From Anodontia alba (taxonomy: Eukaryota > Mollusca > Bivalvia > Lucinida > Lucinidae): a stretch of DNA of 64,000 nt. Where the stretch lies: contig OZ024827.1 in NCBI GenBank assembly GCA_964016985.1, positions 23,577,275-23,641,274 of the forward strand. Direction: 5' to 3'. Numbering within the stretch: the stretch's first letter is position 1; every line of letters begins with the position of its first letter. The notes below the pieces were generated by a model, which did no database searches, was not told the origin of the DNA, and saw nothing but the letters and a program-made list of their open reading frames with translations. Both the position numbers and the translations under genes were made by a program. Shown here piece by piece: positions 4,451 to 44,507 of the stretch.

Positions 4451-5165
4451 TATAAGGAAAGTATTTGCTCCCTCTAGGAGCAAATACTTTCCTTATAAGA
4501 GGGAGCAAATACTTTCCTTATAGAGTAGACCCCTCTGGAAAATTCTTTCCTTTTAGAGTAGACCCCTCTGGAAAATACTTTCCTTATAGAGTAGACCCCA
4601 CTGAAAAATACTTTCTTGATCGAGTAGACCCTCTGGAAAATACTTTCCATATAGAGTAAACCCCTTTGAAAACATTTTCCTGATAGAGTAGACCCCTCTG
4701 GAAAATATTTTCCTTATAGAGTAGACCCCGCTGGAAACTACTTTCCTTATAGAGTAGACCCTTCTGGAAAATACTTTCCTTATAGAGTTGACGCCTCTAG
4801 ATAATACTTTCCTTATAGAATAGACCCCTCTGGAAAATACTTTCCTTATAGAGTAGACCCTTCTAGAAAATATTTTCCTAATAGAGTAGTAGACCCCTCT
4901 AGAAAATACTCTCCTCATAGACTAGACCCCTGTAGAAAATATTTTCCTTATAGAGTAGACACCTCTGGAAAATACTTTCCTTATACAGTAGACCCCTCTA
5001 GAAAATATTTTCCTTATAAAGTAGACGCCTCTGGTAAATACTTTGCTTATAGAGTTGACCCTCTCTGGAAAATACTTTCCTTGTAGAGTAGACACCTCTG
5101 GTAAATACTTTCCCTTAAAGAGTAGACCCTTCTGGAAAATACTCTCCTGATAGAGTAGACCGCTC
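4451..5165 (+). repeat. 33-bp minisatellite array, part 1
   Basis: About twenty units of the type TAGAGTAGACCCCTCTGG + AAAATACTTTCCTTA, with small indels. The left edge is a head-to-head inversion: 4,451-4,471 and 4,477-4,497 are perfect 21-bp complementary arms. Because 33 is a multiple of three, the minus strand has long spurious open frames encoding an 11-residue SIRKVFSRGVY-type repeat. These are not evidence of a gene. Confidence 0.9.
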
Positions 5166-5170
5166 AGAAG

Positions 5171-5204
<34 letters not shown>

Positions 5205-5531
5205 TAAGAGAAAAGTCCAGGGAGTGCCAAAATCACAAACCGCAGCCCTTCCAAGACACCAAGAGGAAGAGGAAACCGACAAATCCAAATAACCACAAAT
5301 CGAACAAACGTACGAAAAGCACTAAGATTAGCTCTGTCTTTCCCCAAACAAGGTAATCAGAAAGCTAAAAGGACTGAAAAACACAAGAACAAAATGACAC
5401 AAGGTAAGACATAAAACAAATCGCTTCGTAGAATAAACCACAAAGTAACAAAGAGTAAGACTAACACCGGGACCACCACCTTAGAACCGTCAGTAGAGTA
5501 AAGCACTTTTACAGCTGGCCAACTTCACCAA
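5166..5531 (-). mobile_element. Retroelement 3' tail inserted in the minisatellite
   Basis: The minus strand reads the same sequence as 15,060-15,432. It starts near GAAGTTGGCCAGCTG at 5,530 and ends in CTCTTACC followed by a pure T-run of about 35 nt (plus-strand A-run 5,169-5,203). Minisatellite units lie on both sides, so the tail landed inside a pre-existing array. The 5' truncation fits target-primed reverse transcription. Confidence 0.85.
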
Positions 5532-5700
5532 CTTCGTAAAACACTTTCCTTATAGAGAAGACCCCGTTAGAAAATACTTTTCTTGAAGAGTAGACCCCTC
5601 TAGAAAATACTCTCTTGATAGAGCAGAACCCTTTGGTAAATACTTTCCTTAAAGAGTAAATCCCTCTAGAAAATACTCTCCTTATAAAACAGACCCCTTT
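5532..5700 (+). repeat. 33-bp minisatellite array, part 2
   Basis: About five more diverged units of the 4,451-5,165 array, resuming immediately after the retroelement tail. Confidence 0.85.
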
Positions 5701-6143
5701 TCAGAAGTGGCTTGGTGTGCAGTACAGCAAAAAGCCACAAATGTTTTCTTTGTTTGCTGGAAAGGGCGAAATTGTACCAAAAAATCCAGTTCCCTTAGTA
5801 TTTTAGGAGCATTAAAACAAACAGGCAGCACTATGTGAAAGTATACTTCTGGGAACGTGTGGAGAGCAAAGGTACAGATCAGACTGCACATGATCTGCGC
5901 TGTGTACTTACATATTTTTTGTATACTGTAGTGTGCATGTATAGTAAACGCCTTTATCAGACTATGCGGCTTTGCTAACTCATGTAAATCTTCAGTGTTT
6001 ATATGAGCCCTAATGTATTTTCTCGTTGTGCAGATCAGACAATAACAGCCAGTAGCTAAGCCAAATGCCTTATGACATGTGCGACCAAATCTGCATATTG
6101 AGAATAGGTTTGGCGATTCAGTTACACTACCCGGGCATATTAT
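5701..6143. other. Unassigned; contains most of a 175-codon minus frame
   Basis: A minus-strand frame (5,682-6,209) is open for 175 codons with many Cys and His residues. It runs through a hairpin repeat at its start and into the minisatellite at its end, and shows no domain I recognise. I treat it as non-coding. Confidence 0.3.
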
Positions 6144-6202
6144 CAAAACATGGTTGTGCTGACATCTTGTATAAAACAAGATGTCAGCACAATCATGTTT
6201 TG
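6144..6202. repeat. 27-bp near-perfect hairpin with 5-nt loop
   Basis: Arms 6,144-6,170 and 6,176-6,202 are complementary at 26 of 27 positions, and the one exception would be a G-U wobble in RNA. The loop is ATAAA. There is no obvious TIR or target duplication. It could be a minimal MITE or, if transcribed, a dsRNA/small-RNA precursor. Confidence 0.85.
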
Positions 6203-6535
6203 TAGTCAACTATTTTCGGTTTCGTACAATTGTTTGCACGTCATGATATATACGTGGCCTAGTTCAAACGTGTACAAATTATTTATCTATCCTTGGGCGC
6301 CTTTCTGGATCCTAGAATTCTGCCTTTGAAGACTGTGCTGCTCGAAGAAATATGTGTGACTATATTTAATTTAAAAAAAATCGCTCATGTTTACGAGATG
6401 ATTCGAAAGAACAACAACTCATTCACAATTGCTAAATATGTTCTTCAGTCTTGTATTAGGCCACTTCTGAAAGGTAGTCGGAAAAGGAGCACTGCTACGG
6501 GATTCATGAATATTTAAGAGGTCCGCCCTTCTTGT
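6203..6535. other. Nothing recognised
   Basis: Short open frames without motifs; no repeat identified. Confidence 0.4.
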
Positions 6536-6870
6536 TTCGGATATGTTCGGACAGAGAAGCTCTTTTACAGGTTGAAGAGCAGCGGTAGGGGTATATCTTG
6601 TCTTTACTATATACCAGCACTTCAGAGGAGCTCCTTTACAGGTTGAAGAGCACCAGAAGGGATATGTCTTTTTTATATATAACAGCACTTCAGAGAAGCT
6701 ATTTTACAAGTTGAAGAGCACCGGCGGGGGTATATCTAGTCTTTAGTGTAAAACACCACTTAAGAGGAGCTCTTGTACAGGTTGAAGAGCACCAGTAGGG
6801 GTATATCTTATTTTGACTGTAAAACGGCACTTCAGAGGAGCTCTTGTACAGGTTAAAGAGGACCAGAAGG
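6536..6870 (+). repeat. ~72-bp tandem repeat, small array
   Basis: Four to five units built from GAGGAGCTCTTTTACAGG, TTGAAGAGCACCAG and GGGGTATATCTTGTCTTT. This is the same unit as the larger array at 7,340-8,400. Confidence 0.85.
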
Positions 6871-7122
6871 AGTACAGTTCCACCTGTGTTCAAGACCACC
6901 TTTGAACAGACAACCTGTCTACTAAGACCACTTCAGATTCCTCCCATCAAGAAATACTGTATAAATTAACTTTGAACAGAGACCACCTGTGTAGTGAGAC
7001 CAGAGGACAGTCAAATTGTTCCTTAATTCTCATTTTCACCATCACTTAATTGCAGTGACTCAAATTGATAAATTGGGCAAATAATGGCTTGAATGAGATT
7101 AATTAATTAAAATTAATTACTA
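6871..7122. repeat. Degenerate GACCACCT-GAACAGA repeats
   Basis: Two or three copies of a motif like AGACCACCTTTGAACAGA occur at 6,890-7,010. The same motif recurs at the inner ends of the foldback arms (7,255-7,330 and 8,398-8,430). Confidence 0.5.
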
Positions 7123-8575
7123 AAGCCTTATATAGATTATTGCTCTAACCACTTCACTTATTAAGTGTAAGTAGACATGATCTAAATAATGCTGCTGAAT
7201 CCTTGCATTCTGTACTTTGTATTCATTTTACTGCTTAATCAGTAAATAAACCCACCCTCTGAATAGACCACCTGTGAGCAAAGAAATTCTTTGCTTCTTC
7301 CCGTGAGTGGTCTTTGTAAACAGGTTGGACTGTATATCTTGTCTTTGTATAGGATAGCACTACAGAGGAGCTCTGTTGCAGGTTGAAGAACACCAGTATG
7401 GGTATGGTATATCTTGTCTTTGTTGTATGACAGCTTTACAGAGGAGCTGTATTACAGGTTGAAGAGCACCAACAGGGGTATATCTTGTCTTTGCTGTATG
7501 ATAGCTCTACAGGGGAGCTTCTTTGTTTTACAGGTTGAAGAGCACCAGTTGGGATATATCTTATCTTTGCCGTATAAAGCACAACAGATGAGCTCTTTTA
7601 TACGTTGAAGAACACCAGTATGGGTTTATCTTGTCTTTGCTGTATGTTAGCACTCCAGAGGAGCTCTCTTACAAATTGAATAGCACCAGTGGGGGTATAT
7701 ATTGCCTTTGGTTTAGGATAGCACTACAGAGGAGCTCTTTTACAGATTTAAGACACCAGTAAGGGTTTATCTTCTCTTTGCTGTATGATAGCTCTATAGA
7801 GGAGCTCTTTTACAGATGGAAGAGCACCAGTAGGATAGCACTACAGAGGAACTTTTTTGCAGGTTGAAGAGCACCAGTAGGGGTATATCTTGTCTTTGTT
7901 GTATGATAGCTCTACAGAGGAGGTGTATTACAGATTGAAGAGCACCAGTAGGGGTATATCTTGTCTTTGCTGTATGATAGCACTACAGGGAGCTTTTTTT
8001 AAGAGTAAAGAGCACAAGTTGGAGTACATCTTATCTTTGCTGTATGATAGCACTACAGAGGAGCTCTTTTATATCCTTACTGGTGCTCTTCAACCTGTAA
8101 GAGCTCCTCTGTAGTGCTTTTATACAGCAGAGACAACATGTACCCCTACTGGTGCTCTTCAATCTGAAAAAAGGGCTCTTGTGTAGTGCTATCCTAAACC
8201 AAAGACAATATATACCCTTATTGGTGCTCTTCAACCTGTACCAGAGCTCCTCTGGAGTGCAACCATAAAGCAAAGACAAGATAAACCCTTACTGATATTT
8301 TTCAACTTATAAAAGAGTCCTCTGTAGTGCTATCCTACGGCAAAGATAAGATGTACTCCAACTTGTGCTCTTTAACCTTAAAAAAGCTCCTTTTTCTTTG
8401 TTCAAAAGTGGTCTTTATTCAGAGCGTGGGTTCATTTACTGATTAAGCAGAAAAATGAATACATAGAACAGAATGCAAGGATTCAGCAGCATTATTTAGA
8501 CATTGATTGGTAATGTCTACCTACACTTAATCAGTGATGTAGTTAGAGCTTTCAAGAGCAATAATCTTTATCCGT
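7123..8575. mobile_element. Foldback-type element with internal inverted array
   Basis: The outer arms 7,123-7,330 and about 8,400-8,575 are inverted copies; both carry AATAATGCTGCTGAATCC and its neighbours. Between them ~72-bp units run forward (7,340-8,075) and then reverse (about 8,085-8,400), so the whole 1.45 kb is a large imperfect palindrome. There is no coding capacity beyond repeat artefacts. Foldback (FB-like) elements have long TIRs built of tandem subrepeats, which fits. I see no transposase. Confidence 0.75.
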
Positions 8576-12123: not shown

Positions 12124-12560
12124 TTAATTGGTAAGCAGTGCGAACCCAGATCAGGGTCTATACTATTTGCATTAAATAGAGGAATTTCTTAAAAAAATAG
12201 AGTAGCATTACGAAAACACGCCTATTCAAATATACAGAAAATTTCACCTCCAAAAAACTGAAAAATTTCAAATAAAAAACTCTGATATTTTTCATGTTTC
12301 TGCACAAAACATAGATTGTGGGTACTCGTTAGAACCGCCTCGGCGAGGCGGTTCTTACGAGTACCCACAATCTGTGTTTTTGAGCAGAAATGAGAAAAAT
12401 AATGTATACCCCTGTAAATCGCAGTTTTATTATATAAAAGTGGGGTTAAGAGGATCAAAATTATATAGGCATGTTCTCGTGATGTAATAAAAAACTAATC
12501 AGACACCCTGCAATTGGAAATAGGCCGGTCCAGAGAGTTGTGTTAGAAGAGTCCACCCGA
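12124..12560 (+). mobile_element. Family G repeat carrying a long palindrome element
   Basis: Begins with GCAGTGCGAACCCAGATC and ends with AATCAGACACC...GGCCGGTCCAGA, as in the 9,890-10,060 copy. Its middle is expanded by a palindrome-centred segment (12,180-12,490) that also occurs at 43,240-43,535. Shared boxes are ACGAAAACACGCCT on the left and TATATAAAAGTGGGGTTAAG on the right. Confidence 0.7.
12306..12383. repeat. Long near-perfect palindrome
   Basis: Arms of about 37 bp with two mismatches meet at CCTCGGCGAGG. Weaker complementarity continues outward to about 12,282-12,402. Degenerate relatives are at 16,440-16,512 and 43,370-43,440, and a short one at 3,723-3,747. Confidence 0.9.
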
Positions 12561-15680: not shown

Positions 15681-16420
15681 CGTCTATTACATGGTGCGGC
15701 GATTTTATTCAGTGTAAAATGCTGAAAAATATACAAGTGCCGTCACGTTGAATAAAAGTATTTGGTAGATGTAATTGCCCGAGAACTGTTTAGTTTAAAC
15801 TTAGCCATATCATTTAAGAAAGTTAAACATCAATTTACGTCGATGTTAGTTGTAGTAGCCATATAAGAATCACAACGGAACTGCTTTCAGCATTATTTAA
15901 TTTCTTTGTACCTTCAAGAAAATGGTAATGAACAGCATTAATGTTACATTTCAAGTACAGTTTCTGGATGAAAAGTTAGAATTAATTTCAGGACGGAAAG
16001 AAGGATATTCTCCATGAATTCAATAACTGGCTTTATGCACATCATGGTTTTATTCTAATGCCTGCAACGGACTATCTATATAATTCTTTTCAGTTTTAGG
16101 ATGTGTTTACTTTTTAACAGTCTTAATAGCTCAAATTTTGTAAAATTTTGCATATTTTGAATTGGACAAGTATCATCTGGTCCTCCATGGAACCATGAGC
16201 GTTTAAATCCAAATGCATTTCTTGCATATCTGCTTTAAAGTGGTTTTATATAAAACAGTGTAAAACTTTAATTACAAACTAGCCGATTATCTTTCAGATT
16301 CCATGGTGAAATTGACCCACGGATTCCTCGACTAATATGCACAAAATGACGATAAAGTTGCAATAAGCATAGATCCAACTAAGTTTTTTTTTCTTTTTTT
16401 TTTTCACTGAAAAGTATTGA
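15681..16420. other. Nothing recognised
   Basis: AT-rich; no open frame above 60 codons; T-rich patch at 16,386-16,404. Confidence 0.4.
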
Positions 16421-16439
16421 TATTTTTCTTACATCTCCA

Positions 16440-16512
16440 CAAAAGCATATGTTGTGGCACTCATTAAAAGCACCTCGCCGAGACGCTTCTAATTAGTACC
16501 TACACATTATAT
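16440..16512. repeat. Degenerate palindrome (relative of 12,306-12,383)
   Basis: TCTCCACAAAAGCATATG and CATTATATGTTTTCGTGGAG arms around GCACCTCGCCGAGACGC. The same layout as the 12.3 kb palindrome but with many mismatches. Confidence 0.65.
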
Positions 16513-16568
16513 GTTTTCGTGGAGAAATAAGAACACTATTGTGAAGATATCCCCTCCTATCTGGAGCT

Positions 16569-16917
16569 ATGAATAGAGAAGGGTGAAGTTGGCTAGCTGT
16601 AAAAGTAATTTAACCCCCCCCCTCCCCACACCCCTTACTCTACTGTCCGATCTAAGGAGGTGGTCCCGGTGTTAGTCTTACTCTTTGTTGCTTTGTGGTT
16701 TATTCTTACCTTGTGTCATATTGTTCTTGTGTTTTTCAGTCCTTTTAGTATTGCGATTACCTCGCTTGGGGAAGAGAGAGCAAATCTTAGTGCTTTTCGT
16801 ACGTTTGTTCGATTTGTGTTTGTTTGGATTTGTCGGTTTCCTCTTCCTCTTGGGGTCTGGGAAGGGCTGCGGTTTGTGATTGTGGCACTCCCTGGACTTT
16901 TCTCTTACCTTTTTTTG
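16569..16917 (+). mobile_element. Retroelement 3' tail, tandem copy A
   Basis: Matches 15,080-15,430 from GGGTGAAGTT onward with an expanded C-run (16,612-16,625) and a small internal deletion (TACGAGGCGATTTG missing). Ends CTTACC plus T-run. A second copy follows 46 bp later in the same direction. Confidence 0.85.
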
Positions 16918-31909: not shown

Positions 31910-34900
31910 TTAAAATCTTTTGCTGTTCTGTATGTACTTGTAAACAGCTTCAAAAATGACTTGATTTGTCTCATAAGGAAGTGACTCATCACCATGTAGA
32001 AATACATGTAGAGACGCATTACAGTATTGAGACACTATCCGAAAAAGTTCGATTCGATTATCTCGATAGAAGTTACAAGAGAAGAGAAAATGTTCCGCGT
32101 TTTCAACATCACCACTTCTACAAGAACAGAGTGGGGTGTCTGAAATTGATTTTACAAATAAGTCATGATTTAAAGAGCTACAACCTGTGCGTAGCCTAGT
32201 ATGCAAAATTTGTAACTTTCTGCTTCCAGTATAAAAATATTTTGGAACTGTAGTTTTGTTTCGGCTTATCTGTGGTTTAAAAGAATCAATTGAATCTACA
32301 TATTTATCATTGTCTGATAAAGTGTTCCATTCTCGTATGACAGACGGTAGGAATGAACTGAAGTACAAAGCAGTTCTCGCGTTAATAGTTTGGACATCAT
32401 TTGCGTTTCTCAAATTGTAACGTGATCCTTCGTTAACTGAAGAAGGAACAAGTGATGAAAGATAATCAGGAGTTAAGTTATTATACATCTTGTAGAACAG
32501 AATCAGCTTATGATTAATTCTTCTGTTTTCGAGAGTTTCCCAACCAATCTCTTTGTACAGATTTTGAATTGATATAAGTTTAGTAGTACCAGATGCTATT
32601 CTAGCTGCTTCTATCTGTATTTTTTTGAGTTCCTGTTTTTCATAATCGCAGCAGTTATCCCAAATAACGTCCGCATATTCTAAAATAGGTCGTATAAATG
32701 TTGTATAAATTATTTCTAAAGATTTCCTGTCTAGTTCATATTTTAATCTACGCATAATATTAATTCTTGTCCAAGCTTTTTCTTTAATATAGTCAATATG
32801 TTTATGCCAAGAGCCATCATTTGAAAAATATATTCCTAAGTGTTTGTGAAATTCAACTTCTTTGATTTGCTGCCCTAACATGATTAAGGAGGGGTGTACA
32901 GGTTTGTTGATTTTCCTGGATATCAGAAGTGTTTCCGTTTTTAAGGGATTGAATTTTACCAACCAAGCTTCAGCCCATTTAACTATTTTTTTCAAGATCT
33001 GCATGAAGAATTTCTGCCGCAACATCTGGATTATCGACAATTATGAAAAGACTGGTATCGTCAGCAAAAAGACGTATGCTAGATCCAATTTCAGTCACTA
33101 TATCATTTATGAAAATTAAGAAAAGAAGTGGTCCTAGGACTGATCCTTGAGGAACGTCTGCCTTGATATAGTTCCATTTTGATTCTACTCCCTGTAAGAC
33201 AACACGTTGTTTTCTACCATCAAGAAGACCGGCATGCCAAACACGGTCAAAGGCTTTACTTATGTCACAAAAAACAGCCCGAACTTCTTTGCCAGCATCA
33301 AGTGCCTGGCAAAATGTATTATACAAGAAAGTGAGTTGGTTAGTAGTAGAGTCTCCAGGTATGAAACCAGATTAAAAAGATGTAAGAATGTTTTTATCAC
33401 AGAGATGATTAAACAGATGTTTAAATACAAGTCTTTCGAAGACTTTGTCTAGATTACTCAATAAAGATATAGGTCGATAATTACAGATGTTAGAAGCATC
33501 ATCTCCGCCTTTAGGTACAGGACAGACGTGAGCTATTTTAAAACTTATTGGAATTTCTCCTTGATGTACGGACTGATTAAATAAAGTAGCTAGTGGTGTT
33601 GACAGTTCACTAGCTAGTTCACGAAGAATGCGGTTACTTATTCCATCAGGACCAACGGCTATACCCGCTGGAAGCGTTCTTAGTATTGCTTTGACCTCAT
33701 CAATAGTAAACACAAGAGAACTTAATGGTTCATTCACAATGTAAGTGTGACATTATCTTCATCTAATAAAGTTTGATCTCTAAAATAATCATTAAAAATA
33801 TTTGCTTTTTCAACTTCGTCGGAATATATCAAGCCATTTCTTTCCAATGGGGGAATAGCAGAAATAGAATTGGGAGAAGTAAATGTTTTTAAAACAGTCC
33901 ACCATTGTTTTGAAGATAGGGTTTCAGATTTTAGCTTATTTGAGAGGGAGTCTACGTACGATTTTTCTGAGTTACGAATCATTGTAGTAATTACATTACG
34001 AAGATGTCTAAACCTTTCCCAGTTAGCTTGTGTATTTGTCCGTTTTGCTTTTTTATACGCTCTTTTACGTATACGTATATGTTTTTTAATTAAAGTAGTT
34101 ATCCACGGTGGCTCAGTCGGTCGTATTGTGACGTGTCTGTTAGGAATACAAGAATCGGTAATTTCAGTTAAAAGATTATAGAAGTTCTTAGTGTATATAT
34201 TTATATCAGAGTTTTGAAGAGAATTCCAATCAGAAGAAGATGCTTTCTGTCTTAATAGATCATAATCGCCCCGGTCGTATTGCCATACACGACGCTTAAA
34301 ACATTTAATTTTAGGTTTTGAGAAATTGAATACTCCAAATACAGGACAGTGATAGCGAATGTCTTGATGTAGGAAGGGATCGCCAACTCCACTAATTATT
34401 ATTCTATCTTTGTTGCTTACTAGTAATAAGTCAATGAGAGAGGACAAATTTTCCGTAAAGTGGGTAGGCTCACTGATAGACTGGAATAAGGAAAACTGTT
34501 GACATAGTGAATTAATTTTACGTGCATATTGCGAATTTAACATATTAAGGTTAAAGTCACCAGTTATGATAATATCATCTATGCCTGTATCGACTGCAAG
34601 ATGGATAGAATCTTCGAGCGAGGAATAGTAAGTCATATCTGAGTTCGGTGGTCTGTAAAATAAACCGAATAAGATACGTTTGTGTTTGATCGTTAAATCT
34701 ATTCAAATAAATTCTACGCCTCTCGGCTCTAATTCACACCTTCTCCGATAGTGAATATTTTCCTTAACATATAGAGTTACTCCGCCATGGCTGTCACCGA
34801 CTCTGTCCATTTCGTTCGGGTTGTCTAAATGTCTGAATGTGCAAATCTTGCGAATGGACAGAAGGATTTAGCCAAGTTTCACTGAAAGCTAGAATATCAA

Positions 34901-35127: not shown

Positions 35128-36804
35128 GGTAAATATATAAAATGTTACTTTGTACGTAAACAGCTGATTTGCAAAAAATACCTGTCCTTTTATTATGCGT
35201 TTACAAGAATGCCTGTATATAATGTTTTCTGCCAAATATGAATCACCTTGTATAGAGGATATGAATGCAAATGCTAGAGCTGGTCTAAAGTAAATATACA
35301 TTACCAAGAGAAATTGGCAAGTAATAGGAATTGAGTACGTATCGAAATAAAAGCACGCATGCAGACCAGCAATTGAACTTTTATCGCGGTACATTATGAT
35401 ACTGTTGACTGAAGAAACAAGAAAAAAACAATCGCTAGTCTACATACGTGCATCATATGGTCGGTGAAGACAAGCTTAACAGAAGATATGCAATCCAATT
35501 CCATTCTACACATCCCCGTTTCACCACCCATCCCATCTCCGGAATAAGATATAAGGAAAAGAAAAAAGTCAATAAATAAAAAGAATCGAGGGCTCATTTC
35601 AAAAGAGCAAGAAATAAGAAAAAAATATTTGAAAAAGGTTCCTTTGGGAATTTCATTTCTTGATAGAAACTGCGAATCAACGAAGGCTCAGATCGGTTCA
35701 CGTGAACAGACCAGGGCTCCCGCTATTCGCAAATAGGGCTTTGATGTATCATCTGTTACATGTGTATGAACTGAGCACTTTATAAATATTTCAAGAATAA
35801 AACACGCAAAGCATATCTGCCACACATATGATAAGACATGATTCATGGAAGACATGACCCTATGAATAAACCGTGCAACGGAAAACCTGACGTAATCATC
35901 GTGAAACTCTACATAAACTAGCAATCTTCGGCAATTAAATTCTAGATCTGCACAAAGCACCGTAATCACAACATCGCCAAGTACAAACTACCTTCATGAG
36001 GCATGCTCCATACATGCTTGATTTCAATAAGTTACTTATTTAAAAAATAAGAACTCAATCGGGTCAGAACCCTCACTGTTCGCCGGTCAGATTCCGATTC
36101 TGCAAAGTATTATGTCAAATACACAGGTATAATGATATTCTCACAACATAACCTGATCTCCAGTGATCTTTAAAAAAGAATAAAAAAAGAAAATCTGCCA
36201 TAAACAGCAATAACCAGACCTGTCAGTGATATAGCTGTATACTAGTATACATTCATAAACAAACGTGTATATGAACATATACATAATAAGCTGGCCAGAT
36301 TATGCAGCATCATTACTTTATTAACCGTCCGCTTTATTTTGTACATGAATCAATCTTAGACAAAGTACACAATCCCGTGCTAACAGCAACAGCCCCGACA
36401 TGACCCAGCCGACAAGAAAAAAAAAAAAAAAAAAACAATAAAAAAACAAAAAAAAAAAACATGCTCACTGGACAGTTCTGCAGACACTAATTTAAGCGAT
36501 CGCAGCGAACAAATACAGATAAAGTGACCTCATTCAATATTACAAATATTAACATCAGCGAACGTATGCCATCACCACAGTGTATACGACATGGTTTACA
36601 AATTACAACACAGCCCAAGTCAACTTACGCAAGCTGATTAACGGTCATGTGTTTACTTCTAAGACCCTGTGATCGACATGCGCTATAATCAGTCATTCAT
36701 ATCTACCCGAAGCACCCAGTCAGATAACCTGAGACAACAGCCTCTGGTCAGGGTTCGCACTGTTGTCTCAATATCCAGCAGTTTATACATATATCAACAG
36801 ACAG
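35128..36804. other. Unassigned between LINE and inverted-repeat element
   Basis: May include LINE 5' sequence. An A-tract lies at 36,415-36,460. Frames up to 93 codons, none recognisable. Confidence 0.4.
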
Positions 36805-37135
36805 TAAAATGAAGTTTTTTAAAAGTAAAACATATTTTAACGAGTAATACTTAACCTATAGATAATGTGCTATTCTCTTCTGTTTTCACACCTTCCACAG
36901 AAAAAACGACCTTTCAGTCGTTAATTAAAGTCTTAAACCAGAAGGTCCCTTAGGCAGTTACCTGTGTGACGTAACTCTTCCCGCTCAATTGACCACGTGT
37001 CAGTTTCTCTTATGTGTAAAACAATAGACACAATTAGGAGAGATAAGCGAGGGTGGTCGGAGGGAGATAATTGATTATCTATAGGTTAAGTATTACTCGT
37101 TAAAATATGTTTTACTTTTAAAAAACTTCATTTTA
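36805..37135. repeat. Left-end hairpin unit with ~62-bp arms
   Basis: 36,805-36,866 is the reverse complement of 37,073-37,135, including TTAACCTATAGATAA on the left and its complement on the right (TTAA at 36,851-36,854 and 37,086-37,089). The loop holds the long segment (36,867-37,012) shared with the right end of the element. A perfect small hairpin AACGAC / GTCGTT lies at 36,906-36,924. Confidence 0.85.
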
Positions 37136-37168
37136 ACTTCATAATACATTAACCTATAGATAATGTGC

Positions 37169-38210
37169 TAGAATTTGCAGAATAGGAGGGAGGTGCTCTC
37201 CTAATTCTAACACCAATAATATCTCACCACTTCTGGTTAAGACTCAGGAAACTCAAAGAAATCAGATACATTCTAATTCTATATTTAATAGAAAGAATGA
37301 TCTAGATTCACAAAATAGCATATCTTTAAGGTGTTATGATCTAACAACCTTATATATATATTAGTAGACTCTAGAGGAAGCCAGTTCTTAAGTCTCAGAG
37401 ACCTAACATTGGCCCCCCCACCCCCCCCCCCCTCTTTTTTCTTTTTGGGAAACAACAATTTGCTTCAAAAAGAAAAGGGAGTCATTGAGACATAACATAA
37501 ATATTCCATCGCAAAGTAAGCTAGGAATATAGAAATATTTTCAAAACAAAATTTGTAAAACCAAAAGCCAAGACCATACACTGTAAGTAATCTATGTAGG
37601 GTCTTGAATAAATAAGGAAATGTCTACTCGGTGGAGTTTCCTATAGATAACTGACATATGTAGATATTTTGGATAAAATTCTAGATATGTGAAGCTATGT
37701 AATTGTAATAGTCTAAGCTATTAGAATTATAAACTAATTAGATTCTGTTAATTGGAGCGACAGGACAGTTTCCGATGAACAGACACAGACTTAAAATAAC
37801 CATAATATGTAATTATTTCCCTTTGATCAAATTAAAGAAGGGGAGATAATAAAAGTAGATGGAGTTAACTTAACTATAACTAAGTTATCCATCAAAGAAA
37901 AAGGTATAGACAAACATAATGGTTAAAACTATTGCTAGACTAATTGTATTACGAATTTTTTAGTCAAGCAATAAAATAATACAGAGTTTGCATATAACTG
38001 CTGGGAAGAAAAAACAACCTAAACCATTGATAATTAGTTTTGTCATAGACATATAAAAGCGTTTGATGTCCTGACAAAAAAATAAAGAATAAACTGTCAA
38101 CATCATAACTTAAGAGTTTGACAGAGAATAAGAGAGATAAGAATAAGGTTGATCGCAGCAAACTGTATGACGGTCATAGTTTGGCTAAATCTTACCGTAT
38201 TGATAAGATT
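37169..38210. repeat. Stem-loop series 1
   Basis: Paired arms read by eye: 37,169-175/37,203-209 with inner 37,184-188/37,198-202; 37,264-273/37,295-303 with inner 37,277-282/37,288-293; 37,328-335/37,343-351; 37,437-446/37,467-476 (low complexity); 37,501-507/37,524-530; 37,570-575/37,600-605; 37,700-711/37,718-729 (12 bp, one mismatch); 37,744-749/37,778-783; 37,812-821/37,841-850 (10 bp, one G-T); 37,858-871/37,882-893 (12 bp, 2-nt bulge); 37,930-942/37,961-973 (13 bp, one mismatch); 38,038-044/38,073-079 with inner 38,048-052/38,066-070; 38,094-100/38,118-124; 38,188-194/38,204-210. Hairpins follow each other with few gaps. Confidence 0.75.
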
Positions 38211-38235
38211 AAGCAATAATAAATAAGCTGGATAG

Positions 38236-38904
38236 AATCTTTTTATACCAGAAGATTGCCATGAAAAGTACTCCTGAGTAAATAATCATGGAAATCAAGA
38301 AATGTTAAAAAATCCACTTTGATACGAATCAAAATGTTCATAAAAAGAGAAGGACTCAGAGAAAAAGTAATAGTGTGATAATCTCTGAAGAAAGATTATA
38401 CAATAATACTGATTAATAATCTCAAAAACACTTAATTTATAAGTTAAGAGATAGTATTACTATTCTATACGCATATTTAAGAATAGTAAGAAATATATTA
38501 ATACTAAATTAAAATTATATTACTGAACAAAATTCCCGCTATAAATAATAGGTTAAGCATAACTATTTATTAAGCAAGGAATTATTAAACATATAACTCT
38601 CTATAAAATTACTGCCCGGAAATTTTATAGATAAACATTCAATCAAATCTTTAGAATTGAATATTAATAGAATAAAATCTATGTCTGCATAATTGGTAAT
38701 TCCTGAAATAGCAAATTACGTACTCGCAAATGAGTTCAGGAAGAAAATACATATATATACTCTCAAGATCTATGTGTAAACCATAGAGAGTAATAATATT
38801 ATTACCGCGATCCCTGACGGAAGGGTAAAAACATGTATATGAAAGAGATAATAATTAATTTAACGTCATATAGGTTTAAGATAAAATTTGTTTAATCTTT
38901 AACC
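38236..38904. repeat. Stem-loop series 2
   Basis: Paired arms: 38,236-241/38,252-257; 38,318-323/38,328-333; 38,405-410/38,453-458 with inner 38,431-435/38,444-448; 38,457-466/38,480-489 (10 bp perfect); 38,531-536/38,578-583; 38,600-610/38,621-631 (11 bp perfect, loop ACTGCCCGGA); 38,637-643/38,656-662; 38,700-707/38,735-742 (8 bp perfect); 38,758-763/38,787-792 with inner 38,770-774/38,782-786; 38,836-841/38,867-872; 38,873-882/38,895-904 (10 bp, one mismatch). Confidence 0.75.
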
Positions 38905-39062
38905 AATATGCAGCAACAGTGACTCGATATTCTGTATTCGTACGTAGAAAAGGAGTACTTATTCATTAGAATTTTGTATGATTGAAATAGAGATAATGGG
39001 ATCTAAAAGGATGTATCTCCATGAACTGAATCGAAGGATAATATCCATTCTAAAAAACTAGG

Positions 39063-39970
39063 GCTTGTTTTAGGCTTAGTTTAACAAGCGTAGAATTGAA
39101 TTATTTCCAAGTATTCATGAAGTCGTTATGCTCTGAATACTGAGAAAAATGTTAAAATATTGTTTAGGAAATAAAAAAGTGACTGTTCCACAATGTTAGC
39201 TAGATTTAAACCTGGAACGTAGCGAGAAGGTCAATCTAATTTAAAAGTAAGATGAGAAAGATAAATAATGAAGATAGATATATAAATATCGGAATAATAT
39301 ATTATCTCCAACAATTATCAAATAATCTGAATGTTTAAAAGCATAAATACTACTCGAAAGTTTATTTACCGAATGTATAATCGGAGAAAACTTTCAGTAT
39401 GTTCAAAAAAGTATCACAAAAGTAAGATCTGACCAGGAACGTAGGTGCAGCACTTACTAAGTTGTGAAGTTAATATAAACATATTTTATATTATAAATTG
39501 AAGCAGTGCATTTCAAAATCATCGACGTCTTGAAATGACTTATTGTGTGGAAAAATAAATAAATATCCAGTTTCGGAAAAGATATTTATCTATATATATA
39601 GAGAATTTTTGATGCGGACTGGAAATCAAGATATTAATCTTTGCATTATTCGCAAACTGAACTTGAACTCTTAGCGAGAATTCCTATGATCCCTTTAACG
39701 AATGTAAACATAAAGGAGGGGTAAAGAGATAATTAAGAGTGTCTTAATTCTTTACCGGCTCGTAATTAAGGATGTTTTCCCTTTTGTCTAAGCCTAGACT
39801 ATAGATTGATTAATATAAATATAATAATATCTGCTATTATGAGGTAAACTTTCGTTAATTAACCTCTAAGCATATATCAAAAATATATATCAACATAATC
39901 TAGAGCTTCGGTAAGTTTAGAGGAAGGAAATGATTGACTTTGGCAGTTTCTGAATAGTTACAAAGTCAAT
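39063..39970. repeat. Stem-loop series 3
   Basis: Paired arms: 39,063-069/39,083-089; 39,101-108/39,167-174 enclosing 39,110-116/39,135-141; 39,201-206/39,233-238 with inner ACCT/AGGT; 39,347-351 plus 39,356-363 with 39,388-400 (13 bp, asymmetric bulge) and inner CCGA/TCGG (39,369-372/39,381-384); 39,421-426/39,453-458; 39,509-516/39,530-537; 39,559-567/39,581-589 (9 bp perfect); 39,640-644/39,652-656; 39,692-697/39,711-716; 39,720-726 plus 39,731-737 with 39,743-756 (14 bp, 4-nt bulge); 39,933-941/39,962-970 (9 bp perfect). The loops at 39,214 and 39,436 share GGAACGTAG. Confidence 0.75.
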
Positions 39971-40015
39971 AAAACAAAATATCAAAAGGAAAGTATTGTA
40001 TATAATATCTAATTT

Positions 40016-40587
40016 AGGCAATAATAATCTGTCACGTACTGAATAATTAATGCCTTTACTAAATATGTATCCATTGTCAATACCAAAGTGCAAGAAAATT
40101 TTGATTGACATGGACTCTAGTTATAAATAAAATATTAGAGGTATAGAGCTAGTAGAAGCAAAACTATTCCTCAATAAGATAAAGTAGACCTATAATATAC
40201 GAGGATTAATTGGGTCTAGAAATTATAATCATAATAAAATTATTATTCCAATATGAAGAATCTTCGGCGTAATAGATTCTTACTGAGGCAAAAATATCTG
40301 GTATATTGCTATCGTAGTCTTAAATGATCCAGAAGAAAAAATAAAACAGGCAAAGTAAAGAACGTATCGAATTAAATCTATGCCTAAATATAAGATTTTT
40401 TTCTTATTTATTATTTTATAGCAGAGTTTAGACAGAGCACGACTGACCTAGACTCTTATATAATCAATCAAAAGATAGTATAAAATAGAATAATAGCTTA
40501 TCGGATCAACTATTTTCCATGTAGAAAAGGCAAAAGGAAAATATGTACCTCAACTAGAATTTTAAATCGTAGTAATCTAGAGAGGTA
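40016..40587. repeat. Stem-loop series 4 with apparent three-way junction
   Basis: Paired arms: 40,016-020/40,051-055; 40,071-081/40,104-113 (10 bp, one bulge); 40,115-119/40,136-140; 40,169-173/40,284-288 closing a loop that contains two more hairpins, 40,185-190/40,213-218 and 40,256-262/40,275-281 (a three-way junction layout); 40,423-430/40,449-456 (8 bp with G-T); 40,511-518/40,536-543 (8 bp perfect); 40,546-551 plus 40,554-558 with 40,576-580 plus 40,582-587 (11 bp, small bulges). Confidence 0.7.
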
Positions 40588-40719
40588 GCGAATAAAGAAA
40601 TAAACTGTTAACTGGACAGAATTCAAGAATATAAATGGCTACTAGGTATTAGAACCCATCGCTGTCATTCAATAACCTATAATCCAAGACTATACATAAT
40701 ACTATATATAATAGTGGTT

Positions 40720-40805
40720 ATTAAATAAATATATCTTGAGCAAGTACTAGTGACTACTACTCATTAAATAAATATATCTTGAGCGAGTACTACTGACTAC
40801 TACTC
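40720..40805 (+). repeat. 43-bp tandem duplication
   Basis: 40,720-40,762 and 40,763-40,805 differ at two positions. One change (A to G at 40,785) creates a longer CGAGTA/TACTCG stem in the second copy. Confidence 0.9.
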
Positions 40806-41640
40806 GGACACTAGTAATCCGACACAAAGTCTACGAAACTACTGCTCGGTGGAATTTCGTTAGAATGACCTGGCACTACTCTACGAAGTGCCTCCCGATG
40901 AAATTTTTGTTAGAGCCGGAATTTAACCGCTTTCTAGCGAATTAAAGAGATAAAACATCATTTGAATAACCTGGCACTAGTCTACGAACTGCTGCCCGGT
41001 AAGAATTTTGTTATAGTCGGAAGTTTAACTCTTTCTAGCGGATAAAAGAGATAAAACATAAGTTAATTTAAAATATTAATGGAATTACACACCTATAATA
41101 AGTCAATGGAATATTAAAGATTCTAGTCTGATTCGGGAAAGACTGTACAGAATTTTTTGTATAAAAAGTTATTATGTATTTCACTTAATAACCTATATCC
41201 ATTGACTTAAACGTGAATGGAGCTCTATGAACGATAATAGATTGTTCGGGAATTAGTGATCATTATTTTGACACTAGTTACCCGACACAATGACCGGACA
41301 CTAGTATTCGTAACTGTTGCCCGGTAAAGTTACAAGTAATTTGACAAATTGATCGGATAGTAGTATTCGTAACTCTAGTCCGATGAAAAAGGGAGATTAT
41401 ATATGAAAACTTAGCGGGCACAAGTATTCGAAACTTTTTCCCGAAGATAATTAATTATTAGGCAAAAATTGACCAGACACTTTCTGTAAAAGTTTGCCTG
41501 GTGAAAAATCAGAAATAATATAATAATATGACCGGGTATAAGTATTAGAAATATTAATGATACTTTGCCCAGTGAAAATTTTTTTTAATAATTAGACATA
41601 ATGACCGGAAGTTAGTATACGTGACTATTTTGTCCGGTGA
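40804..41640. repeat. Array of ~60-100 bp hairpin repeats with co-varying arms
   Basis: Nine related hairpins. Outer arms: 40,819-822/40,846-849 (CCGA/TCGG); 40,872-877/40,887-892 (GGCACT/AGTGCC); 40,969-976/40,993-41,000 (ACCTGGCA/TGCCCGGT); 41,247-250/41,281-284 (CGGG/CCCG); 41,293-297/41,321-325 (ACCGG/CCGGT); 41,352-357/41,379-384 (ATCGGA/TCCGAT); 41,415-418/41,440-443 (CGGG/CCCG); 41,472-476/41,498-502 (ACCAG/CTGGT); 41,604-609/41,633-638 (ACCGGA/TCCGGT). A tenth, weaker one at 41,531-573 keeps AC.GGG/CCC.GT. Most loops contain AGT-ATTCGTA-ACT; unit 41,472 instead has ACTTT/AAAGT, the swapped pair. Arms change in concert between units. Confidence 0.8.
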
Positions 41641-41656
41641 AATATGTCAAAAACTA

Positions 41657-41683
41657 AGTCTTTCCAGAAAATAATTAAAGACT
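41657..41683. repeat. Perfect 7-bp stem-loop
   Basis: AGTCTTT (41,657-663) and AAAGACT (41,677-683), the last hairpin before the minisatellite. Confidence 0.7.
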
Positions 41684-41908
41684 GAAGACTAGTTGACTGG
41701 TGCCTGGTTGATCGGTGGCTGGTGACTGGTGACTGGGTGACTGGTGACTGGTGACTGGTGCCTGGTTGACTGGCACCTGGATGACTGGTGACTGGTGCCT
41801 GGTTGACTGGCACCTGATTGACTGGTGACTGGTGAAGCTGATTGACTGGTGCCTGGTTGACTGGTGACTGGTGACTGGTGACTGGATGACTGGTGACTGG
41901 TGGACTTA
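41684..41908 (+). repeat. GTGACTGGTGACTGGT(G/T) minisatellite
   Basis: About 25 units of 7-9 bp (GACTGGT with variants GCCTGGTT, GCACCTGG, GATGACTGGT). A 62-codon minus frame rich in SHQSPVT repeats is a by-product. Confidence 0.9.
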
Positions 41909-41942
41909 GACTTAATCGGATACTAAGTACCCAAAGATGCCA

Positions 41943-42040
41943 CCTTGATGGGTCTTACCCCGGCAGTATAGCCATATGGGGTGGGGCTCCCATCAGTAAA
42001 GAATTGTCTTATAACCCATCAAGGGTTGACAAGTTCTTTA
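41943..42040. repeat. Two overlapping long stems (mutually exclusive or pseudoknotted)
   Basis: CCTTGATGGGT (41,943-953) pairs perfectly with 42,014-024. AAAGAATTGTC (41,998-42,008) pairs with 42,028-039 (11 bp, one bulge). The two pairings interleave, so they would form alternative folds or a pseudoknot. An inner ACCCC/GGGGT stem (41,957-961/41,978-982 approximately) also exists. Confidence 0.65.
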
Positions 42041-42420
42041 CAATCAGCTTCTCCACCATGAGAATCTTTAGCCAACTGAAGATCTCTGCAAACAAAAGTC
42101 CAGGAAAAACATATCGTAATTGCTGAATAACCTGGAACGAAAAGAACAAAAATATTCTGCATATATAAACACGACTATCGAACCGATCGCGCACGAGCGT
42201 TGTGCCGAATAGCGAGAGTCGCGAAAACGCATGTGGAAAAAGACCAGTCAAAAAATACATGAAATCGAAAATTGAAAATTTTAAATAATAACACAGAAAG
42301 TGAAAGGAGTGATAAATAAACAAAAGAAACACAAGGATACATAAATTTATCCGTGAGGAAAGAAATAATCCAAATTTCTATCACAGGTAAATAATCCTTG
42401 TTGAATTTCTTTGTCCACAG

Positions 42421-42600
42421 AAAAGAAACTGACACGTGGTCAATTGAGCGGGAAGAGTTACGTCACACAGGTAACTGCCTAAGGGACCTTCTGGTTTAAG
42501 ACTTTAATTAACGACTGAAAGGTCGTTTTTATTGTGGAAGGTGTGAAAACAGAAGAGAATAGCACATTATCTATAGGTTAATGTATTATGAAGTTAAAAT
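42421..42600. repeat. Right terminal inverted repeat
   Basis: Reverse complement of 36,855-37,012 plus the short outer segment shared with 37,131-37,170. Landmarks are GACACGTGGTCAATTGAG, GTTACGTCACACAGG and AGCACATTATCTATAGG. Confidence 0.85.
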
Positions 42601-43239
42601 GTACTGGTTCAATTTGTTGCACAAAGTTGGTAAGATATCATATCCTGATATTTAGAGCAACTACGTTATTCTGACGTGTGTTATTTTGGAGATGAGATAT
42701 TGCGGGTTAACGCACAGGCTGACCAGTACCATCGCTGTCACAGATGTCAAAACAAAATCTATGTACTCAAGTCAACTATGAGCGTGGTATTGATAGGGCC
42801 GATCCAGACAGAATTCAGAGGGGTTCAATTTGACAAATTTACAACATCTGCTCTATATATTCAGACAGGCAGATCTTTGTAGACAGACCAGACTCAAGTC
42901 AGTCCCCGTCGAACTCAGCGACTGATCAGGGAGAAATTCCCACACACTTGTTGTAAAGAAGTAAAAGATAAAGAGTAAGGGTATGAATAAATAGAGCAAA
43001 TGCGATATTCCTTTAAGTCGAAGTGGGGTCAACTGAACCCCCAAATTCCCTCTGAGTCCGCCTATGATTTACGTCACTGCGTAGCTGGATTGCATCAGTT
43101 CAATACTATGATGTTTTCGATTTAACGTAGCATGAAATTATCATGCTTAGCACAGATACACCGGTACTATTGTAAAACGTATTAGTACACAGTAAATTCA
43201 CCTGTTGATAGTATAGTATACTGTATGCAGTTAAGAAGG
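42601..43239. other. Nothing recognised
   Basis: Frames to 68 codons; no repeat identified. Confidence 0.4.
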
Positions 43240-43559: not shown

Positions 43560-44507
43560 TCAGTGCACCATCCCAGTACCCGCCGAGGTTGGATCAGAAC
43601 CATCGGATCCACCGGAAGACGCCCGGGCTCCAGTAGTAGAAAACTGGTAATCAAGGGATGGCACAGGACCAAACTGAGCCAGGTCATCCTCCGACGTAAT
43701 CCGACGAACATCCTCGTCGCCATTGCGCACCAAGATGGTACCATCACTCGACCAAACACTCTTAATGTACCTCAGTTTTACCATCTTGCGCGCTTTCCTA
43801 ATGAGTTCATTTCTAGATTTGGTAAAGTCTTCATTTATATATACACCCATAAAACCTTTGGCCTTTGTCAGTGTTCTAGCTGAGTAAACTCTCCTTCGTA
43901 CACGATAAGAAACAAACTTTACAATTATGTCACGAGGTCTCCTTCCTGGTGTTTTGGGTCGGCCTACTCGATGACTACGTTCTATATCGTTGACACTTAT
44001 ATCAGCGCCAATTGCTTTGGCCATGTCAACAATATAGTAGTCGGTATTTTCCGAAGAATTTTCCGGCACGCCAGCGACTCTCAGAAAATTCCGACGACTA
44101 TATTGTTCAGCTTCATCAACTTTAGCCTCGAGAGACGCTACCTTTGTTCTTAACAACCAGTTCTCCTTTTCAAGGGAGGAAATGGTGGCCTTTAGCCCAT
44201 CCACAACACCACTTATTATATTGTTTATCATCTGTGTTATATTTGTTTCAAAACTGCTGTGTAGAATTTCAGCAATTGTTTTCAAGTCATTTTCCTTGAG
44301 TGTAATTGATGGGACGGATGTGATGCTGGAGCTCTCAGAGGAGACATTGGCAATTTGTTCACTTTCAGCCACTTTTCCAGTTATCGAACTGTCGAAATTG
44401 GATTCAGAGACAAGCCTATTTTTCTTCAGTTCACTGAGATCCTCAGGCGATGTTAGCTGCCTCTTCTTGCTACCCGATGAAGATACCGGCGTAGATGTAG
44501 TGCTCAT
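43560..44507 (-). CDS. LINE ORF1p-like protein, intact 315 aa
   Basis: A complete frame from ATG (44,505-44,507) to TGA. Residues 1-70 are Ser/Thr-rich and polar. About 70-137 is helical and heptad-like (ISSLEKENWLLRTKVASLEA), a probable coiled coil. EQYSRRNFLRVAGVPE to about 205 has the order of an L1 ORF1p-type RRM (ERSHRVGRP, RPRDIIVKFVSYRVRRRVY). 206-275 resembles the C-terminal domain (KGFMGVYINEDFTKSRNELI). The tail is Gly/Ser-rich. Such proteins bind retrotransposon RNA as trimers. No ORF2 follows within 1 kb on the same strand; the nearest, at 35.1-31.9 kb, lies beyond the 5.8-kb element. It could be the orphaned ORF1 of that LINE, another element's ORF1, or a domesticated gene. Confidence 0.75.
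   Translation of the reverse strand: MSTTSTPVSSSGSKKRQLTSPEDLSELKKNRLVSESNFDSSITGKVAESEQIANVSSESSSITSVPSITLKENDLKTIAEILHSSFETNITQMINNIISGVVDGLKATISSLEKENWLLRTKVASLEAKVDEAEQYSRRNFLRVAGVPENSSENTDYYIVDMAKAIGADISVNDIERSHRVGRPKTPGRRPRDIIVKFVSYRVRRRVYSARTLTKAKGFMGVYINEDFTKSRNELIRKARKMVKLRYIKSVWSSDGTILVRNGDEDVRRITSEDDLAQFGPVPSLDYQFSTTGARASSGGSDGSDPTSAGTGMVH

What the first reader, a model, noticed from the sequence alone, without database searches (positions are those of the whole stretch)
37169..42060. A 5-kb non-coding sequence made of back-to-back stem-loops
Reading this block by eye, almost every 60-80 nt can be folded into its own hairpin. I list about 45 arm pairs in the feature table. They include perfect stems of 9-11 bp (38,457/38,480; 38,600/38,621; 39,559/39,581; 39,933/39,962) and interrupted ones of 10-14 bp (37,700; 37,858; 37,930; 39,347; 39,720; 40,546), with nested stems and a three-way junction layout (40,169-40,288). 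A rough hand estimate for ~70% AT predicts about two perfect stems of 9 bp or more with short loops in 4.5 kb. The excess of long and nested ones, and the near-continuous tiling, look non-random. No protein frame competes. Possible readings: a long structured RNA, a DNA element maintained by hairpin-mediated repair, or repeated snap-back duplication. I know no described eukaryotic element with this design.
Basis: partly seen in the sequence, partly recalled or inferred. Interest (0 to 1): 0.9.

Follow-up and report, generated by a model that had tools for sequence, protein, structure and literature searches.

The report
Noncoding DIRS retroelement tiled with hairpins
The hairpin-rich block is the inside of a young, protein-free jumping element of the DIRS type, present in many near-identical copies in this genome, and its short hairpins are real and appear to be preserved by evolution, although what they do is still unknown.

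Summary
It is the interior of a mobile element spanning 36806-42599. The element has inverted terminal repeats, a 29-nt one-sided extension, no visible target-site duplication, and an internal segment (37074-37170) that reverse-complements the joined ends, 97 of 97 nt in this copy. That combination defines DIRS1-like tyrosine-recombinase retrotransposons. It has no ORF of 120 aa or more, so it must be moved in trans. Coding DIRS families exist in the same genome; the matching partner was not found. Of 21 copies examined, 18 have both ends; each 200-column block averages 97.2-99.5% identity to the majority. Genome search gave 1795 first-look candidates, 40 scored. The interior carries 58 local hairpins against 23.4±3.8 in shuffles, with CG enriched in loops. 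In one diverged relative, arms of five hairpins are 95% identical against 75% for loops and linkers; 0 of 394 shifted masks reach that (the reciprocal test is weaker). So the stems look constrained. Whether they act as RNA or single-stranded cDNA is unresolved. My best guess is a folded genome body standing in for the coding region.

The parts
36806..42599 (-). whole element (noncoding, non-autonomous DIRS1-like retroelement), AAAA core at each end included; its sense strand, judged by where the ICR lies, is the minus strand; this copy lacks about 412 bp (after 40611) present in fetched copies such as L010
   Evidence: 18 of 21 copies examined have both ends; copies break off at these ends; AAAA at both ends next to unrelated host flanks
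36806..36834 (-). right extension (rE): terminal 29 nt found at this end and in the ICR but not at the other end
   Evidence: ITR alignment starts at 36835
36835..37016 (-). right (3') inverted terminal repeat
   Evidence: 36845-37016 is 97% identical to the reverse complement of 42416-42588; tip aligned
37074..37170 (-). internal complementary region: exact reverse complement of the circle junction (5' end joined to 3' end), junction TTTT at 37131-37134
   Evidence: 97 of 97 nt here; 95-97 matches in each of the 18 copies with both ends
37183..41690 (.). hairpin array: 58 hairpins scoring 7.5 or more, arms mostly 6-13 nt, span 21-62 nt, CG in 27 of 58 loops
40818..41643 (.). part of the array with ten recognisably related CCGG-stem hairpin units
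   Evidence: alignments A1 and A2, pair counts; the covariance model finds these ten units and nothing else below E 0.58 in the window
41694..41902 (+). TGACTGG minisatellite inside the element (not part of the hairpin excess)
42416..42599 (-). left (5') inverted terminal repeat

Best explanation
The block is the interior of a noncoding, non-autonomous DIRS1-like retroelement that has recently spread to many copies. Shown: the terminal architecture, the exact circle-junction copy (ICR), integration at AAAA without visible target-site duplication, absence of coding capacity, similarity of the copies, and an even array of short hairpins whose arms are better conserved than loops and linkers in one diverged relative. 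Inferred: the element is transcribed, reverse-transcribed and circularised by proteins of a coding DIRS element acting in trans, using its own ICR as the splint, and is inserted by the partner's tyrosine recombinase. Inferred with much less certainty (about 0.35 for this step): the hairpins are a cis-acting folded body that replaces the coding region in the RNA or in the single-stranded cDNA, for example by binding the partner's Gag or compacting the molecule, while the total length (about 6.1-6.2 kb in most copies with both ends) stays within the range of coding DIRS elements.
For: Inverted terminal repeats 36835-37016 and 42416-42599. ICR equal to the reverse complement of the joined ends, 97 of 97 nt here and 95-97 matches in each of 18 copies. 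Sizes (rE 29, conserved ITR about 165, ICR 40+57) fall in the published table of DIRS1-like elements (for example AcDIRS1: rE 26, conserved ITR 140, ICR 40-58; passages of PMC3266345); an ICR at the 3' side of the interior and no duplication are also the curation criteria in PMC8969392 (passages). AAAA at both ends in 18 of 18 copies; G at -2 in 17, T at -1 in 16, T or C at +1 in 17 of 18. One empty site: a copy of the host repeat around L025 reads ATGAAAACATATG uninterrupted. Coding DIRS families in the same genome have a tyrosine recombinase ORF, overlapping an ORF with a weak Dam-like match, followed by an inverted-repeat 3' structure of the same kind, which supports the polarity. Copies are alike; many first-look candidates. 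Hairpin excess. Hold-out: of 7 hairpins in or straddling the 412-bp block absent from the window, 6 have CG in the loop. Arm conservation 82/86 against 53/71 loops and 176/235 linkers, 0 of 394 shifted masks. In ten related units 4 of 6 pairs changed on both sides.
Against: No partner with matching ITRs was found: at E up to 0.01 none of 30 recombinase loci (about 1.5 kb on each side of the hit) matches the ITR, nor does L060. No evidence of transcription or of circles was available. A 4-bp AAAA duplication would leave the same sites. For the hairpin function: in 17 young copies stems are not clearly less variable than the rest (0.061 singletons per site against 0.073 in linkers and 0.061 in loops), and none of the 4 pairs that vary on both sides shows a compensated double change. 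Dropping G-U raises the folding signal, unlike the rRNA control. In the reciprocal test arms are 86% against 75-77%, 7 of 394 shifts are as high, and 9 of the 13 changed pairs are plain mismatches. With 14 units counted on the minus strand the shuffle control is weak (14, 71, 73 and 173 of 500 for cells changed on both sides, pairs changed, score and percentage paired). Host flanks themselves have a mild hairpin excess (172 against 133.9±10.8).
Confidence: 0.78

Rival explanations
1. The element is DIRS-like, but the hairpins are a mutational by-product: a noncoding passenger copied repeatedly by reverse transcriptase accumulates short reverse-complement copies by template switching, and the same process repairs stems, with no function.
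For: Watson-Crick-only pairing, about equal on both strands; compensated pairs in related units without wobble on the plus strand; one local change in the window copy near 40.7 kb raised the hairpin score from 7.0 to 9.5. Template switching in DNA replication is proposed to create and repair such stems (PMC8794818, abstract and opening read).
Against: Arms are 95% conserved in a relative while loops are 75%; arm-to-arm copying alone should give compensated double changes, and only 0 of 43 pairs (reciprocal: 1 of 58) shows one. CG enrichment in loops is not predicted. Apart from the one change named, the scan of 17 copies for clusters of substitutions found none inside the array that raised hairpin score.
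Confidence: 0.2
2. The hairpins act as DNA: in the single-stranded cDNA circle they are recognised by structure, for example by the partner's tyrosine recombinase, as attC hairpins are by integron integrase.
For: No wobble preference and about equal signal on both strands; variable stems with CG near the dyad centre; the element type is thought to pass through cDNA that is circularised and inserted by a tyrosine recombinase (PMC3266345 and PMC5633606, passages).
Against: Recombination between hairpins was not looked for. Pairs changed between relatives are G-T 3, A-C 0 (reciprocal 2 and 1), a small lean to RNA of the plus strand. The attC comparison is recalled, not tested.
Confidence: 0.15
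3. Chance pairing in AT-rich DNA.
For: Single windows are only moderately significant; at 7 bp or more and at 11 bp or more one control region has as many perfect stems; the named three-way junction is ordinary.
Against: Maximum of 200 shuffles is 32 hairpins against 58; the AT-matched control is near its shuffles; arms conserved.
Confidence: 0.02
4. A DNA transposon (TIR type, Helitron or Crypton) rather than a DIRS retroelement.
For: Inverted repeats and no coding region.
Against: Exact internal copy of the joined ends, one-sided extension, no visible duplication, integration at a core shared with the junction; coding elements of the same plan in the same genome carry a tyrosine recombinase and a weak Dam-like match.
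Confidence: 0.03

Closest known systems
DIRS1-like retrotransposons (order DIRS; PMC3266345, passages read)
   Same: Inverted terminal repeats, ICR complementary to both ends, right extension, no target-site duplication, A/T-rich junction, similar sizes
   Different: No ORF of 120 aa or more, so none of the gag, RT, RNase H, methyltransferase or recombinase genes; the interior is a hairpin array
LARD and TRIM non-autonomous LTR retroelements of plants (PMC7215508, passages read)
   Same: Noncoding retroelements thought to be moved in trans, described there as having well-conserved RNA secondary structures
   Different: LTR type, no inverted ends and ICR; local hairpin tiling is not described in the passages I read
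Ngaro/PAT-type tyrosine-recombinase retroelements
   Same: Tyrosine-recombinase retroelements
   Different: Split direct repeats (PMC3266345, PMC9210276 and PMC8969392, passages), not inverted repeats with an ICR
Integron attC arrays (recalled)
   Same: Tandem hairpins with variable stems in an element handled by a tyrosine recombinase
   Different: Bacterial gene cassettes; attC boxes were not tested
Retroviral packaging and dimerisation stem-loops (recalled)
   Same: Series of short hairpins with loop motifs used for genome recognition
   Different: A handful of hairpins in a leader, not about 60 over 4.5-4.9 kb

Membership tests
DIRS1-like retrotransposon | inverted terminal repeats, partly divergent near the tips | tested here: met
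   36835-37016 with 42416-42599, about 165 nt near-identical plus a divergent tip
DIRS1-like retrotransposon | internal complementary region equal to the reverse complement of the joined ends, beside one ITR | tested here: met
   97 of 97 nt in the window; 95-97 matches in each of 18 copies
DIRS1-like retrotransposon | left or right extension | tested here: met
   29 nt at 36806-36834
DIRS1-like retrotransposon | integration at a sequence shared with the circle junction, no target-site duplication | tested here: met
   AAAA at both ends in 18 of 18; flanks otherwise unrelated; one empty site among 18 joined-flank queries against the sequence in hand. A 4-bp AAAA duplication would look the same
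DIRS1-like retrotransposon | encodes RT, RNase H, methyltransferase and tyrosine recombinase | tested here: not met
   no ORF of 120 aa or more within 36806-42599; longest stop-to-stop run 104 aa in the L010 interior, within the shuffled range 63-115. Hence filed as non-autonomous, not as a coding member
DIRS1-like retrotransposon | circular DNA intermediate and RNA intermediate | not testable with these tools
   no reads available
non-autonomous partner of a particular coding DIRS family | shares ITR/ICR sequence with a coding element | tested here: inconclusive
   no ITR match at E up to 0.01 in 30 PF00589 loci, nor in L060; 150 of 518 candidates were scored and 30 became loci
LARD | direct long terminal repeats with primer site | tested here: not met
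   ends are inverted repeats; primer site not looked for
known structured RNA family | match to an Rfam model | tested here: not met
   no match at gathering score in the window nor at E up to 1 in 36750-42700
constrained hairpin array | arms slower to change than loops and linkers | tested here: met
   between two relatives: 95% against 75%, 0 of 394 shifts; reciprocal 86% against 75-77%, 7 of 394; not visible among young copies. One pair of sequences, 395 aligned positions, five and six hairpins

The most novel reading that the evidence does not exclude
A retroelement whose genome is in essence a string of about 60 short hairpins with CG-centred loops, held by selection: a protein-free parasite of DIRS elements that spreads by offering its partner's proteins (Gag or recombinase) an array of folded recognition sites in RNA or in single-stranded cDNA, at the same total length as a coding element.
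Probability: 0.3. Interest if true: 0.82.

Novelty: new variant of a known kind. Interest (0 to 1): 0.62.

Why it matters
In four literature searches no listed title or abstract start described an abundant noncoding DIRS family; I opened passages of four of the listed papers only (PMC3266345, PMC5633606, PMC8969392, PMC9210276), and the library holds open-licence papers only. If the hairpins are needed for spread, this is a natural experiment on what a DIRS element needs in cis, an open point since the proposed DIRS-1 replication route is described as not fully proven (PMC5633606, passages). Many similar copies make the questions testable with ordinary long-read RNA and circle sequencing. In my judgement, several kilobases of short hairpins that look constrained without coding would surprise a specialist.

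Tried and rejected
Ordinary TIR transposon or palindromic MITE at the left end: rejected once 37074-37170 proved to be the reverse complement of the joined ends. The YR-bearing locus L040 as the autonomous partner: rejected, it is a coding DIRS family nested inside a copy of this element, and no ITR match was found. The 380-aa recombinase family (L060): no ITR match. All hairpins as one eroded satellite: a covariance model of 14 units recovers the ten units at 40.8-41.6 kb, and the next best hit has E 0.58 in the window and 0.23 in L010. UNCG or GNA mini-loops (recalled types): A at +3 of the CG occurs in 26 of 35 CG-bearing loops and 54 of 97 CGs of the whole interior, but the neighbouring positions do not show the closing pair such loops need. 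RNA-strand call from wobble pairs: inconclusive (G-T 14, A-C 8; 12 and 9 in the window and 7 and 11 in L010; A-C 4, G-T 0 in the ten aligned units by my own reading of A1; G-T 3, A-C 0 between relatives). Letting G-T, A-C, A-G or C-T count as pairs gave z 5.0, 6.7, 5.4 and 11.2 in the window against 10.4 for Watson-Crick only, and 5.0, 7.7, 5.0 and 6.9 against 10.6 in L010; the C-T value shows how noisy such z are. The rRNA control also showed that my hairpin caller finds nothing beyond shuffles in rRNA (z about 0), so only its G-U comparison is used. Before I narrowed the aligned blocks, one search gave 46 of 53 pairs unchanged, 4 G-T, 2 mismatches, 1 compensated. Rows dropped: L027 (has both ends, large internal deletion); L009, L013, L021 (one end not found) from the alignment. 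The 20 fetched copies were the best-scoring ones, so they lean to high identity.
Full report
OBSERVATION. The excess is beyond chance in aggregate. Folding z of 150-nt windows is -1.45 (+) and -1.60 (-) in 37169-41650, against -0.22 and -0.18 in the AT-matched control at 58-62 kb; left of 36500 it is -0.45 and -0.59, right of 42700 -0.39 and -0.23, with single 2-kb blocks down to -1.26. With 80-nt windows it is -0.98 (+) and -1.16 (-) against -0.06 to -0.46 in three control regions. The window holds 58 non-overlapping hairpins against 23.4±3.8 in 200 shuffles (maximum 32) and 24-27 in three control regions. Inverted 6-mers stand two- to threefold above the baseline at separations of 15-37 nt, more than in the controls, of which two also show some rise; direct 6-mers show no rise there. 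Perfect stems of 8-10 bp are in excess, while at 7 and at 11 bp or more one control region has as many. In a full copy (L010) density is even, 5-9 hairpins per 500 nt against shuffled means of 1.7-3.1, and 2.53 times the shuffle in total against 1.28 times for 25.2 kb of host flanks.

WHAT IT IS. The block lies inside a repeat unit, 36806-42599. The query 36700-37170 gave 259 first-look candidates, of which 40 were scored; all 40 match over the right part of the query at 98-100%, and the 39 other than the window itself begin between query positions 92 and 107, that is 36791-36806. The interior query 38600-39400 gave 1795 first-look candidates, 40 scored, all 40 at 99-100% over the whole query. 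These are not copy numbers; the tool scores only the best. The 20 best after the window were fetched. With the window, 18 of 21 have both ends, one of them (L027) with a large internal deletion. Lengths between the end anchors are 6124-6203 in 15, 5998 in L026, 5791 in the window and 4286 in L027. The window copy lacks about 412 bp that L010 has.

ENDS. The two ends are inverted repeats (36835-37016 and 42416-42599). One end has 29 extra nt. Segment 37074-37170 is the reverse complement of the two ends joined at AAAA: 97 of 97 nt in the window and 95-97 matches in each of the 18 copies (coordinates checked). AAAA stands at both ends in all 18; the flanks are otherwise unrelated, with G at -2 in 17, T at -1 in 16 and T or C at +1 in 17. 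One copy (L025) sits in a host repeat; another copy of that repeat, in L015, reads through the site with a single AAAA. These are the features that passages of PMC3266345 give for DIRS1-like elements: ITRs, ICRs overlapping at a short circular junction, right extension, recombination with an identical genomic sequence, no duplication; passages of PMC8969392 use the ICR at the 3' side of the interior and the lack of duplication as the marks of this type. A 4-bp AAAA duplication cannot be told apart from recombination at AAAA by the sites alone; the ICR makes the latter much more likely.

POLARITY AND PARTNER. A PF00589 search of the genome scored 150 of 518 candidates; 30 became loci. In the six loci I checked for end structure, the recombinase match is followed by inverted repeats within the last 420 nt of the element, 80-82 nt at 99-100% in the three loci of one family and about 270 nt at 78-79% in the other three. 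Two recombinase ORFs given to Pfam match PF00589, and three overlapping upstream ORFs give weak Dam-methyltransferase matches below Pfam's cut-off. So in this genome, as in the literature, the ICR side is the 3' side, and the sense strand of the element studied here is the minus strand. At E up to 0.01 none of the 30 loci matches its ITR, nor does L060; two of the 30 carry its interior because a coding DIRS is nested in, or lies near, a copy or relative. The element has no ORF of 120 aa or more; the longest stop-to-stop run in the L010 interior is 104 aa, within the shuffled range of 63-115. I therefore file it as a non-autonomous DIRS1-like element, partner unknown.

THE HAIRPINS. In L010 there are 65, arms 6-13 nt in 59 of them, spans 20-60 nt. 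In the window CG occurs at 3.73 per 100 dinucleotides in loops, 1.51 in linkers and 1.26 in stems; three control regions show no such contrast. The loop-to-linker ratio of 2.47 exceeds all 200 shuffles (1.04±0.38, maximum 2.16); host flanks show 1.80 and 1.27. CG sits near the dyad centre; 35 of 65 loops hold one in L010 and 27 of 58 in the window. As a hold-out, of seven hairpins in or straddling the 412-bp block missing from the window, six have CG in the loop. Ten units at 40.8-41.6 kb are related; 4 of 6 pairs changed on both sides, with 0 of 500 shuffles as high for cells paired, cells changed and covariation score, 16 of 500 for pairs changed, and 474 of 500 for further pair types. With four more units from the relative, one more pair, and counting on the minus strand, the shuffle control weakens (173, 14, 73, 71 and 485 of 500), though sliding the helix still destroys the pairing.

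CONSTRAINT. Among 17 young copies stems are not clearly less variable than the rest, and no compensated double change is seen; they may be too young to tell. A diverged relative (L062 plus L034, 79% identical over 395 aligned positions) tells more. Arms of the five hairpins called in L010 in that stretch are 82/86 identical there, loops 53/71, linkers 176/235; no circular shift of the arm mask among 394 reaches the observed value. With the six hairpins called in the relative, arms are 102/118, loops 70/93, linkers 127/164, and 7 of 394 shifts are as high; of 58 pairs 45 are unchanged, 9 are plain mismatches, 3 are wobble-type (2 G-T, 1 A-C) and 1 is compensated.

RNA OR DNA. Forbidding G-U pairs makes the signal stronger in the element (plus strand -0.98 to -1.26, minus strand -1.16 to -1.39), whereas in E. 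coli rRNA it makes it weaker (-0.49 to -0.37). Allowing G-T or A-C as pairs does not help either. That looks like DNA-level complementarity, or template-switch repair of stems as proposed in PMC8794818 (abstract and opening read). Against that, the few pairs changed between relatives lean to G-T (3 against 0; reciprocal 2 against 1). I leave the level open. Pure arm-to-arm copying would give compensated double changes and, by my reasoning, leave arms as fast as loops; neither is seen.

MECHANISM. By the accepted model of DIRS (PMC3266345 and PMC5633606, passages; the latter says it is not fully proven), RNA is copied to cDNA, the ICR serves to restore and bridge the ends, a circle forms, and a tyrosine recombinase inserts it at a sequence equal to the junction. 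The element keeps the terminal cis parts of that cycle and no gene, so it should depend on a coding DIRS. That the hairpins serve this parasitic life, as recognition sites or as a compacting body, is inference; I put it at about one in three.

NOVELTY. In the listings I saw no paper on an abundant noncoding DIRS family. I opened passages only: PMC9210276 speaks of degenerate families, PMC5633606 uses 'non-autonomous' for non-LTR elements, PMC8969392 does not describe noncoding DIRS in the passages shown; the two papers were not opened. LARDs are the nearest functional analogue (PMC7215508, passages). The kind is known; the noncoding, hairpin-tiled variant appears new within those searches.

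Noticed in passing
L040 (C10:19841695) and L034 (C12:47485746): A coding DIRS family (L040 has a 405-aa recombinase ORF; 97-98% between copies) ends at TTTT inside a copy of the hairpin element in L040; in L034 another copy lies a few hundred bases from a diverged relative of it.
   Followed up: partly
G000, e.g. C2:117433954 (L060): Roughly the last 110 of the 150 rows have nearly the same score over profile positions 73-77 to 161, most with a 380-aa open frame, which suggests another recently active tyrosine-recombinase element; 1.7 kb at one copy shows no similarity to the hairpin element's ends.
   Followed up: partly
window 4507-8378: Long tandem arrays with 33-nt and about 71-nt periods (up to about 20 copies).
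   Followed up: no
window 33734-34636 and 43560-44507: ORFs that look like parts of LINE-type elements: a weak endonuclease match (below Pfam's cut-off) and a baculovirus FP domain match; five other ORFs tested gave no Pfam match.
   Followed up: partly
L062, 1971-2064: A long palindrome made of GGTTGTCAATAGCGAAATCGCTATAGACAACC-like units, left of the diverged array.
   Followed up: no
L030 and L047 (contig C240): The strongest PF00589 match of the genome search lies on a contig stretch dense in ORFs on both strands; possibly bacterial contamination or a symbiont.
   Followed up: no
L025, L015, L014, L020 and window 12275-12401, 16399-16569: A host repeat with a palindromic GAAGCGCCTC...GAGGCGCTTC core occurs near several copies of the element and in the window, and supplied the empty site.
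   Followed up: partly
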